Program-made: the position numbers and the translations under genes
The notes under the pieces: generated by a model
The model's database searches: none
The model's input: the letters and a program-made list of their open reading frames with translations, nothing else
What the model was told of the DNA's origin: nothing
Shown here: in pieces, positions 17,601 through 19,441 of the stretch
Numbering within the stretch: position 1 is the first letter of the stretch
Layout: each line of letters opens with the position of its first letter
NCBI GenBank assembly: GCA_000381585.1
Contig: KB906735.1
Span: 270,242 to 334,241, forward strand
Direction of reading: 5' to 3'
Source: Acidobacteriaceae bacterium KBS 83
GTDB taxonomy: Bacteria > Acidobacteriota > Terriglobia > Terriglobales > Acidobacteriaceae
Length of the DNA: 64,000 nucleotides

Positions 17601-18413
17601 ATGGCGCATGCAGAGGCCGACGGAAGACTGAGCCATCTGAACCACGAGCTCGTCGCGTCGCTGAACGACTTCCACGATCCGAGACAAGAGTGGCGCCGCC
17701 TCTTCTCGGAGCTGCTCGGAACATTCTTCCTCGTCCTCGTGGCCGCGGGTGGCGGCATGATGGGGCAGGCCTTTCCCGGCACAATCAGCCGCACCGCTGC
17801 GGTCGTCGCACCCGGTCTGATGGTGATGGCGATCATCCTCTTCATGGGCAAGGTGTCCGGCGCTCACCTCAATCCTGCGGTCAGTATCGCGTTCTCGCTG
17901 CGTGGTGACTTCCCATGGCGTCGCGTGCCGGGATACGTCGTCGTGCAGTTGATCGGCGCGACGCTCGCGGCACTCTTCCTGCACGCTGTGATCAACGTAT
18001 CGGCCAGCTACGGGTCGAACTATCCCGCGTCGGGATACTCCGCGTCCGATGCGTTCCTGATGGAGGCCGTGCTGACCCTCGGTCTCGTCAGTGTCATTCT
18101 CGGCACGGCGTCCGGCGCCCAGAACGTCGGGATCTTCGGCGCGATCGGCGTCGGCGCGTACATTGCGCTCGCCGGGCTGTGGGGGAGCCCCATCTCGGGA
18201 GCGTCGATGAACCCGGCCCGCACATTCGGCCCGAACCTAGTCGCAACCGACTTCACGAGCTACTGGGTATATGTCGCAGGCCCACTCGTGGGCGCAGTTC
18301 TCGCGGTGGGTGCAGCATGGGTGCTCCGCGGTGCCGGCGGCGGGCGCGCAGGCTCAGGTGCGGCACAGGGAAGCCTTTTCACCAAAGTCGAGCACCCGGA
18401 GAAGAAGGGGTAA
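17601..18413 (+). CDS. Aquaporin / MIP-family channel
   Basis: Predicted tetrameric water or small-solute channel in the inner membrane (270 residues). Two half-helix signatures are intact: HLNPAVS (about residue 90) and SMNPART (about residue 203), each followed by a membrane helix; six hydrophobic segments are visible (ELLGTFFLVLVAAGGGMMG; APGLMVMAIILFMG; YVVVQLIGATLAALFL; FLMEAVLTLGLVSVILG; IGVGAYIALAGLWG; YVAGPLVGAVLAVGAAWVL). The N-terminal 30 residues are hydrophilic and the tail is Gly/Arg-rich. Codon use is more GC-rich than its surroundings and the neighbours are decayed genes, so acquisition by transfer is plausible. Water versus glycerol selectivity cannot be decided here. Confidence 0.9.
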   Translation: MAHAEADGRLSHLNHELVASLNDFHDPRQEWRRLFSELLGTFFLVLVAAGGGMMGQAFPGTISRTAAVVAPGLMVMAIILFMGKVSGAHLNPAVSIAFSLRGDFPWRRVPGYVVVQLIGATLAALFLHAVINVSASYGSNYPASGYSASDAFLMEAVLTLGLVSVILGTASGAQNVGIFGAIGVGAYIALAGLWGSPISGASMNPARTFGPNLVATDFTSYWVYVAGPLVGAVLAVGAAWVLRGAGGGRAGSGAAQGSLFTKVEHPEKKG

Positions 18414-18679
18414 ATGTATGGTCCGTCGCCTGATTGCAAGCAAAATCTTCCATGGCAAAGCGATCTGCGCAAATATATTCGACTTCTGAGTGAAGCGATC
18501 TATCTGCTTCGAGCCATGATGGAATCCGCGCCCGCCCTCTCCTGACAACCCAAGCGGTCTCCAATTGCGGACCGTCTACCCCGGAAGGTTCAAGGTGGGC
18601 AGCATGAACCTGTTCAGCCATCAATCAATCTGTTTGCGAACCTGGTGAGAACTCTTCGATCCCCGTCGTGGTAGCTGTC
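18414..18679. other. Intergenic spacer after the aquaporin gene
   Basis: No gene, tRNA or terminator is evident. It ends at the long hairpin that flanks the IS110 remnant. Confidence 0.4.
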
Positions 18680-18726
18680 GTAAGGAAAAGTGGAAATCAC
18701 AAACTTGATTTCCATATTTTCCTTAC
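18680..18726. repeat. Long near-perfect hairpin at the end of an IS110 remnant
   Basis: Arms GTAAGGAAAA/TTTTCCTTAC (10 bp) and TGGAAATCA/TGATTTCCA (9 bp) stack with only a 1-versus-2-base bulge and a six-base loop CAAACT. The outer right arm includes the TAA stop of the IS110 transposase scrap. It may be an IS terminus structure or the transposase terminator. Confidence 0.75.
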
Positions 18727-18822
18727 GCGCAGACTGTCGGGGAATAGACCTGGCCGGTGGTTAGCACGGCCCAGGCAATACGTGCCAGCTTGTTCGCCAC
18801 CGCAATGATAGCGACATTCTAC
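18723..18822 (-). mobile_element. IS110-family transposase C-terminal remnant
   Basis: The minus strand encodes VAIIAVANKLARIAWAVLTT followed by GQVYSPTVCA and a TAA stop. This is the highly conserved C-terminal end of the DEDD/Ser transposases of IS110/IS116/IS902. Only about 33 residues remain. The upstream part is replaced directly by a CusA-type pump fragment on the other strand. Confidence 0.75.
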
Positions 18823-19441
18823 GGAGGCTTCGTCCGGGGTGCAGACAAGCACCTTCACGAGATACCTGCGTTGCCGGCAAATTACTCTTTTCAGTGGTCG
18901 GGAGAGCACGAACTGGAGTTGCGAGCCAAACAGCGACTGCAACTGATTCTTCCAGTCGTCTTCTTCGTGATCTTTCTACTTCTGTATCTTGTATTCCACT
19001 CAGGTGCGGAAGCGCTTGTCCTCATCTTTCCAACGATCTACACCATGACCGGCGGATTGTTGCTGCCGTGGCTGCTTCATCACAACTTCAGTGTTGCGGT
19101 GCCGTTGGCTATATCGCGCTCTTTGGAATCGCGGTCGAGACTGGTGTGGTCATGGCGGTCTATCTCCATGAAGCACTCGAGCACAAACTGCAAAGCGGGA
19201 AAGCGCTGACTAACGCCGAGGAAGCGGCAGCCATCGAAGGTGCTGTGCAACGCCTTCGCCCAAACTCATGACCGCCTGCGCGGTTCTTGCGAGCCTGGTT
19301 TCAATTCTTTGGGAATCCAATATCGGTTCCGATGTGATGAAAACAATTGCCGCTCCCATCGTCGGCGGCATGATTACCTCAACTATCCATGTCCTGATCC
19401 TGGTACCCGTCTCCTTCGTCATGATGAAGGAGCGGGCCTGA
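18823..19441 (+). pseudogene. CusA/CzcA heavy-metal RND pump, C-terminal remnant
   Basis: Three successive frames reconstruct the last third of a metal-efflux pump: SFQWSGEHELELRAKQRLQL and LPVVFFVIFLLLYLVFHSG, then after a shift near 19090 GYIALFGIAVETGVVMAVYL with IEGAVQRLRP, then after another shift ACAVLASLVSILWES, APIVGGMITSTIHVL and VMMKERA. These are the hallmarks of the heavy-metal branch, distinct from the intact HAE1 pump at 8.4 kb. The N-terminal two thirds are missing and an IS110 end sits at the junction. Confidence 0.82.

What the first reader, a model, noticed from the sequence alone, without database searches (positions are those of the whole stretch)
18680..19441. IS110 end with a long hairpin abutting a truncated CusA pump
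An IS110 transposase C-terminus, its stop codon inside a 47-base stem-loop, meets the cusA-type fragment at one exact point. IS110 elements carry structured non-coding RNA at an end, so the stem-loop may belong to an IS end or bridge-RNA-like region rather than being a simple terminator.
Basis: partly seen in the sequence, partly recalled or inferred. Interest (0 to 1): 0.5.

Follow-up and report, generated by a model that had tools for sequence, protein, structure and literature searches.

The report
Fossil RNA-guided jumping-gene end
The stem-loop is part of the right-hand end of a dead, half-deleted IS1111-type jumping gene whose guide RNA still partly matches the place where it landed: a decayed member of a recently recognised kind of RNA-guided element, not a new kind.

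Summary
On the minus strand, 31 C-terminal codons of an IS110-superfamily transposase (18723-18818) adjoin a cusA-type fragment; the stop codon (18723-18725) lies in a 49-nt stem-loop (18679-18727). The element does not stop there. Homology to relatives in other Acidobacteriaceae continues to 18415, one base past an aquaporin stop codon, ending in an IS1111-type subterminal repeat plus 3-bp extension. So 18415-18818 is the right end of an IS1111-type element; its left end and about 90% of the transposase are gone. The 308-nt noncoding region holds a seekRNA/bridge-RNA-like domain: two guide segments flanking a GGUC-GACC hairpin. Across 28 non-redundant elements (17 for the left flank) the guides match their own flanks far better than permuted flanks (0 of 20,000); the window copy matches its flank at 7 of 9 bases. 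The stop-codon stem-loop is separate, about 95 nt upstream of the guides. It occurs in 17 of 26 elements surveyed (window copy included), with both-side changes at 13 of 21 pairs; 7 lack it and 2 were not scored. It is not the guide and not a convincing terminator; most likely it is a 5' structural part of the seekRNA precursor. Known kind, fossil copy.

The parts
18415..18818 (-). Remnant (right 404 bp) of an IS1111-type insertion sequence
   Evidence: DNA homology to relatives across the whole stretch, 72-76% in five other genomes; right end defined
18723..18818 (-). Last 31 codons and stop (TAA, 18723-18725) of the transposase gene
   Evidence: Translation; stop position checked; tblastn to the L057 transposase, 55% over 40 residues
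18679..18727 (-). Stop-codon stem-loop: 49 nt, outer and inner stem, loop of 6
   Evidence: Fold; covariance model match 66.3 bits, the window being one of its 5 source sequences; pair counts over 17 elements
18415..18722 (-). Downstream noncoding region, 308 nt
   Evidence: Between the stop codon and the right end
18528..18600 (-). Predicted target-binding domain of the seekRNA (span of the RNAalifold consensus pairs)
   Evidence: RNAalifold on 25 elements, mapped to the window; the window sequence's own fold is not unusually stable, z +1.78
18575..18583 (-). First guide, CGGGGTAGA; matches the complement of the right flank at 7 of 9
18555..18574 (-). GGUC-GACC hairpin between the guides
   Evidence: Consensus pairs, columns 100-117
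18547..18553 (-). Second guide, TTGGGTT; predicts a left flank ending in TTGGG (flank lost)
   Evidence: Alignment position equals the left-flank guide of relatives
18418..18431 (-). Right copy of the subterminal inverted repeat
   Evidence: Identical to the right repeat of L057, where the pair is perfect over 14 bp
18415..18417 (-). 3-bp right-end extension (ACA)
18406..18414 (-). Right flank (first 9 bases, TTTACCCCT), including the aquaporin stop codon at 18411-18413
17601..18413 (+). Aquaporin-family gene next to the right end, reading frame intact
   Evidence: Pfam MIP, E 7.5e-49
18819..19441 (+). C-terminal cusA/RND-type fragment in three reading frames (pseudogene), joined to the cut transposase gene
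   Evidence: Pfam ACR_tran in three frames; CusA chains in the PDB for the first frame

Best explanation
This is the surviving right end of an IS1111-type insertion sequence. In an intact element the transposase mRNA and the downstream noncoding region would be transcribed together. The RNA would fold into a 5' stem-loop at the stop codon and, about 95 nt later, a target-binding domain whose two guide strands flank a GGUC-GACC hairpin. The first guide pairs with the top strand of the right half of the target, the second with the bottom strand across the junction, and the transposase would use this seekRNA to place the element. The window copy lies one base after an aquaporin stop codon, leaving that gene's frame intact. 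It has since lost its left end and about 90% of tnp by an event that joined it to a cusA fragment. The stem-loop most likely bounds and stabilises the 5' side of the seekRNA precursor. Shown by sequence: family features, right end, guide slots, partial flank match, conserved hairpin. Inferred: expression, processing, the hairpin's role, and how the deletion arose.
For: Homology through the hairpin to 18415 in relatives. IS1111-type end with 3-bp extension; perfect 14-bp repeat pair and 7-bp left extension in the intact relative L057, 1,390 bp with a 340-aa transposase. Guide slots match own flanks: 7.50 of 9 against 5.13 permuted (28 elements) and 4.76 of 5 against 3.31 (17 elements), 0 of 20,000 each; unchanged with one element per distinct flank (16 and 10), and the first motif peaks in one bin only, z 8.8. 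Window guide 7 of 9 at the expected place (0.16% of window 9-mers do as well at that offset). Hairpin in 17 of 26 elements, 84% of cells paired, 13 of 21 pairs with both-side changes, 0 of 2,000 arm deals reach the pairing.
Against: Only 31 transposase residues and one end remain, so the left end, left extension and left flank cannot be checked in the window. 2.4% of window 9-mers reach 7 of 9 if 16 offsets are allowed, and the flanks of two other elements score 7 as well. In 6 of 40 elements the best match of the flank motif lies outside the slot region. The guide domain of the window copy is not unusually stable on its own (z +1.78). The number of compensated pairs and of pair types in the hairpin is reached by 146 and 672 of 2,000 arm deals. 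No expression data.
Confidence: 0.85

Rival explanations
1. The stem-loop is an ordinary intrinsic terminator of the transposase gene (or, read the other way, of the convergent aquaporin gene).
For: A lax scan flags a terminator-like site on each strand at this hairpin: 2 found against 0.7 (sd 1.0) in shuffles.
Against: No continuous T-tract follows; relatives have C-rich tails such as CTTTCCC; termination here would cut off the guide RNA downstream; the covariance model finds no other copy in the genome.
Confidence: 0.1
2. The stem-loop itself is the guide RNA (the bridge or seek RNA proper).
For: It is structured, conserved in architecture and lies in the noncoding region of the IS.
Against: The flank-matching signal peaks 160-173 and 130-148 nt from the right end, the hairpin is at 265-313; elements without the hairpin still have matching guides, for example L066 with 9 of 9 and 8 of 8.
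Confidence: 0.03
3. The stem-loop is a translation-coupled switch: a ribosome ending at the stop codon opens it, so transposase translation controls folding or trimming of the seekRNA precursor.
For: The counted outer arm starts between -2 and +7 of the stop codon's first base in 17 of 17 elements that have the hairpin; two unpaired A.C positions are conserved in most relatives.
Against: It is absent from 7 of 26 elements, several with matching guides, so it is not essential; no expression data.
Confidence: 0.18
4. The hairpin is a chance palindrome with no conserved role.
For: The stem is nearer to perfect in the window than in relatives because two positions that are mostly mismatched elsewhere are A-U here; the lax fit of L036 and L037 is no better than that of many of their shuffles (19 and 16 of 60).
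Against: The same two-stem architecture at the same place in 17 elements, pairing not reached by any of 2,000 arm deals.
Confidence: 0.03

Closest known systems
IS1111 family insertion sequences with a seekRNA (ISEc11, ISPa11, ISKpn4, ISPst6; PMC11187229, parts 1-4 of 9 and passages read)
   Same: Noncoding region downstream of tnp, subterminal repeat, 7-bp and 3-bp extensions (7-bp in relatives only), transposase of about 340 aa (relatives), two target-matching segments with the top-strand match first
   Different: The window copy is a remnant. Many of the acidobacterial elements add a stem-loop at the stop codon, which the parts I read do not mention for ISEc11 and the others
Bridge RNA of the IS110 group (IS621; PMC11208160, passages read)
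   Same: A 5' stem-loop followed by a target-binding internal loop whose two sides match the two target strands
   Different: There the RNA is encoded upstream of the recombinase in the left end; here downstream, in the right end. No separate donor-binding loop was looked for here
ISPpu9 with its downstream sRNA Ssr9 (PMC8450116; 12 of 48 passages read)
   Same: An RNA of about 180 nt encoded downstream of tnp, sometimes in tandem or orphan copies; compare the doubled right-end segment in L031
   Different: Proposed there to act as a sponge for the antisense RNA Asr9; the paper's main text does not contain the word IS1111
IS4321 and other annotated IS110-family elements of non-acidobacterial plasmids
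   Same: Transposase relatives (43-50% identity), subterminal repeat pair and downstream noncoding region
   Different: No comparable stop-codon stem-loop in the folds of the four examined (judged by eye)

Membership tests
IS1111 family | DEDD transposase with Transposase_20 domain, 330-350 aa | tested here: inconclusive
   Only 31 residues remain in the window. Relatives: L022 matches both Pfam models; L057 encodes 340 aa
IS1111 family | Subterminal inverted repeats, usually 11-13 bp | tested here: met
   Right copy present at 18418-18431; pair perfect over 14 bp in L057. The window's left copy is lost, so the pair itself is seen only in relatives
IS1111 family | Terminal extensions of 7 bp (left) and 3 bp (right) | tested here: inconclusive
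   Right: ACA, met. Left: lost in the window; 7 bp in relatives
IS1111 family | Long noncoding region downstream of tnp | tested here: met
   308 nt between stop codon and right end
IS1111 family | Noncoding RNA with target matches, top-strand match 5' of bottom-strand match | tested here: met
   Order and flank matching; by sequence only. For the window itself only the first guide can be checked (7 of 9)
IS1111 family | seekRNA bound to the transposase; circular intermediate | not testable with these tools
   Needs an experiment on an intact relative
IS110 group sensu stricto | Longer noncoding region upstream of tnp, no long subterminal repeat | tested here: not met
   Region is downstream and a long repeat is present
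Intrinsic terminator | G+C-rich hairpin followed by a U-tract | tested here: inconclusive
   Lax scan positive on both strands, but only 3 G-C pairs counted and no continuous U-tract; tails of relatives are C-rich

The most novel reading that the evidence does not exclude
Acidobacterial IS1111 elements carry a lineage-specific stem-loop, fixed at the transposase stop codon and with conserved A.C mismatches, that acts as a translation-coupled maturation switch for the guide RNA; the IS1111 and IS110 passages I read describe no such part.
Probability: 0.18. Interest if true: 0.55.

Novelty: new member of a known kind. Interest (0 to 1): 0.3.

Why it matters
It gives a purely genomic confirmation, in Acidobacteriaceae, that two guide segments of IS1111 noncoding regions follow the flanks element by element, and it fixes their positions relative to the right end. 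It also describes a pairing-conserved stem-loop at the stop codon that could be tested as a processing or coupling element; PMC11187229 leaves the role of the long RNA open and says further processing would be needed to give the seekRNA. For the window itself the result is ordinary: a dead element beside an intact aquaporin gene.

Tried and rejected
Rfam at E up to 1 gave only two weak hits far below their gathering scores. A similar hairpin elsewhere in the genome: none by DNA; by pattern, one other place with 3 mismatches; by covariance model, one other weak hit, E 0.8. A parent copy in the genome: the three Transposase_20 hits lie in broken reading frames and lack this repeat; I take them for another subgroup. 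A second IS1111-type remnant, L086, has both ends but shows no transposase C-terminus by the motif searched and no good guide match in the slots. An uninterrupted target site to check the predicted left flank: not found; the aquaporins listed at E 1e-40 or better in the family are 54-56% identical, and the downstream DNA I printed for two of them differs; the one same-genus genome searched has only a weak match. Stability of the guide domain: not unusual. Tree of 25 transposases for gain and loss of the hairpin: label scattered (7 changes, shuffled mean 7.7); L015 is an unreliable row with a very long branch, so it says little. A first alignment of hairpins from mixed groups (A1) was out of register and not used for counts.

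Dropped before counts: nine loci were left out as repeat fetches of the same place or element (L001, L032, L034, L045, L039, L057, L044, L067, L075) and nine had no recognised right end (L040, L072, L041, L023, L013, L030, L024, L021, L073), leaving 40. Twelve of the 40 were dropped as near copies, leaving 28. Two of the 28 (L038, L043) had no stop codon located, leaving 26 for the hairpin survey. L010 and L065 were left out because the fit put them in another register, and the seven without the hairpin were left out too. For one search, 45 sources were given, not all loci.

Full report
WHAT IS THERE. The minus strand of 18723-18818 reads as the last 31 residues of an IS110-superfamily transposase and a TAA stop. 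The stop lies in a 49-nt stem-loop, 18679-18727; the 131-nt stretch around it folds far below its shuffles (z -3.64, 0 of 200). Beyond 18818 the plus strand continues as a CusA-type RND pump, C-terminal part only and in three reading frames.

THE ELEMENT GOES ON. In the window's own genome the only DNA match to 18430-18815 is itself. Of 398 genomes drawn from the same family, own genome included, 10 match 18415-18819 at E 1e-8 or better; five others (G387, G295, G359, G397, G072) match most of it at 72-76%. The alignment runs past the hairpin to 18415, where the eight aligned members end in GCGRCGGACCAT plus ACA or GCA. Three copies in G032 fix that boundary: their pairwise alignments stop within two bases of it, and the two comparisons with L031 in G075 do the same. 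The two G072 copies do not help, since their right flanks are alike for 300 bp. The closest intact relative, L057 (an Acidobacteriaceae bog MAG, PLSM01000082; taken to be the same element as L035, same flanks), is 1,390 bp long, has a 340-aa transposase, a perfect 14-bp subterminal repeat pair, TAATGGA (7 bp) outside the left repeat and ACA (3 bp) outside the right. These are the features that PMC11187229 gives for the IS1111 family as distinct from IS110 (parts 1-4 of 9 read; passages). The window thus holds the right 404 bp of such an element; the left end and about 90% of tnp are missing.

WHERE IT SITS. The base next to the element (18414) follows the stop codon (18411-18413) of an aquaporin-family gene (MIP, E 7.5e-49). 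The element lies one base after the stop and the reading frame is intact. The two family homologues whose C-termini I printed differ from it and from each other there.

GUIDES. I aligned noncoding regions and asked, for 40 elements with a recognised right end, where the reverse complement of the first 9 flank bases fits best. In 34 of 40 the best place is 155-171 nt from the right end; the six others are L017, L019, L025, L031, L037 and L076. With near copies removed (28 elements) the mean match in the slot is 7.50 of 9 against 5.13 (sd 0.21) when flanks are permuted among elements; 0 of 20,000 permutations reach it. The last five bases of the left flank match a second slot at -142 to -130: 4.76 of 5 against 3.31, 17 elements, 0 of 20,000. 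With one element per distinct flank (16 and 10 elements) the results stand, 7.38 against 4.95 and 4.90 against 3.29, 0 of 20,000 each. A scan along the region gives one peak for the first motif (z 8.8; other bins -2.5 to 1.0); for the second motif the two bins that share the slot give z 4.1 and 2.0, the others -2.0 to 1.6. RNAalifold on 25 elements puts the two slots on either side of a GGUC-GACC hairpin, closed by a CCU-AGG stem. The top-strand match lies 5' of the other, the order reported for IS1111 seekRNAs.

THE WINDOW'S OWN GUIDE. Its first slot is CGGGGTAGA (18575-18583); the flank asks for AGGGGTAAA, so 7 of 9 match, and one of the two departures would be a G.T wobble. At that fixed offset 0.16% of all window 9-mers do as well, 2.4% if 16 offsets are allowed; the flanks of two other elements (L008, L019) also score 7. 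The second slot, TTGGGTT, predicts that the lost left flank ended in TTGGG; I found no uninterrupted site to check this.

THE HAIRPIN. Of 26 non-redundant elements with a located stop codon, window copy included, 17 have the same two-stem architecture: an outer stem with GGAAAAG/CTTTCCC or variants and an inner stem TGGAA.../...CCCA, in several with a further stretch, often a small hairpin, inserted between the 5' arms. The counted outer arm starts between -2 and +7 of the stop codon's first base in all 17. Seven lack it (L005, L007, L015, L016, L018, L066, L076); six of these seven have noncoding regions of 295 nt or less, against 300 or more in the 17. L010 and L065 fell in another register and were not counted. 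Over the 17, 84% of cells are standard pairs and 13 of 21 pairs show a change on both sides. Dealing whole 3' arms among elements never reaches the pairing (0 of 2,000), but reaches the number of compensated pairs in 146 and of extra pair types in 672 of 2,000, so the pairing percentage is the strong statistic; the registers were fitted to the structure, which leans towards it. Two positions are A.C in most relatives (inner position 4 in 14 of 17; outer position 8 in 11 of 17, plus 2 A.A); the window has A-U at both, which is why its stem looks so perfect. Against their own shuffles the lax fit is reached in 0-7 of 60 for 15 of the 17, but in 19 of 60 for L036 and 16 of 60 for L037. A covariance model from five elements, the window among them, finds the hairpin at one place in the 6.25-Mb genome (both strands; next hit E 0.8; 150 of 660 candidates scored). 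Four annotated non-acidobacterial elements, from Pandoraea, Mesorhizobium, Citrobacter (IS4321) and Sphingobium, and one further Acidisarcina element show no comparable stem-loop in their folds, judged by eye.

HOW IT MOST LIKELY WORKED. By analogy with characterised members, the circular form makes a promoter, tnp and the noncoding region are co-transcribed, and a long RNA is trimmed to a 70-100-nt seekRNA (PMC11187229). The hairpin is on the 5' side of that RNA, outside the guide domain, and missing from some elements, so I read it as a stabilising or processing element of the precursor. PMC11208160 (passages only) describes a 5' stem-loop in bridge RNAs of the IS110 group; that is a resemblance, not a test. 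The position on the stop codon allows coupling to translation, the most novel reading left open. A terminator is unlikely (no continuous U-tract, C-rich tails in relatives, and it would cut off the guide RNA), though a lax scan flags it.

STATE OF THE COPY. It should be dead: no left end and no catalytic domain, and I found no intact relative in the genome. The three Transposase_20 hits lie in broken frames. A second broken IS1111-type remnant with both ends lies on contig 15.

NOVELTY. A new member of a known kind. In the held library I searched seekRNA with IS1111 (6 papers), bridge RNA with IS110 and IS1111 (4), three of four IS1111, RNA, stem-loop and insertion-sequence terms (86, 12 listed), IS110 with bridge RNA since 2025 (14, 13 listed) and Acidobacteria with IS110 and insertion sequence (6); no title or start of abstract listed there describes these elements or a stop-codon stem-loop in them. 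That is a listing-level statement only.

Noticed in passing
L086 1305-2349 (window's own genome, contig C15): A second IS1111-type remnant in the same genome, 1,045 bp, with both left and right ends but a broken transposase gene and no good guide match in the slots.
   Followed up: partly
L031, right ends at about 1828 and 1959 of the oriented copy: A right-end segment of about 136 bp is present twice in a row, reminiscent of the tandem ssr9 copies reported for ISPpu9.
   Followed up: no
L005 1-470: What looks like a group II intron maturase C-terminus (recognised from memory, no family search) lies just upstream of the transposase gene, where the left end of the IS is expected and not found.
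   Followed up: no
L011 13-59: The hairpin model matches a second place in this locus on both strands, far from the element that brought the locus in; possibly another IS remnant.
   Followed up: no
window 17601-18413: The aquaporin has relatives of 54-56% identity at E 1e-40 or better in only 6 of 397 other family genomes, and only 33-35% matches elsewhere in its own genome, so it may be a sporadic or transferred gene.
   Followed up: no
window 18679-18727: Two A.C mismatches conserved in most relatives' stems are A-U in this decayed copy.
   Followed up: partly
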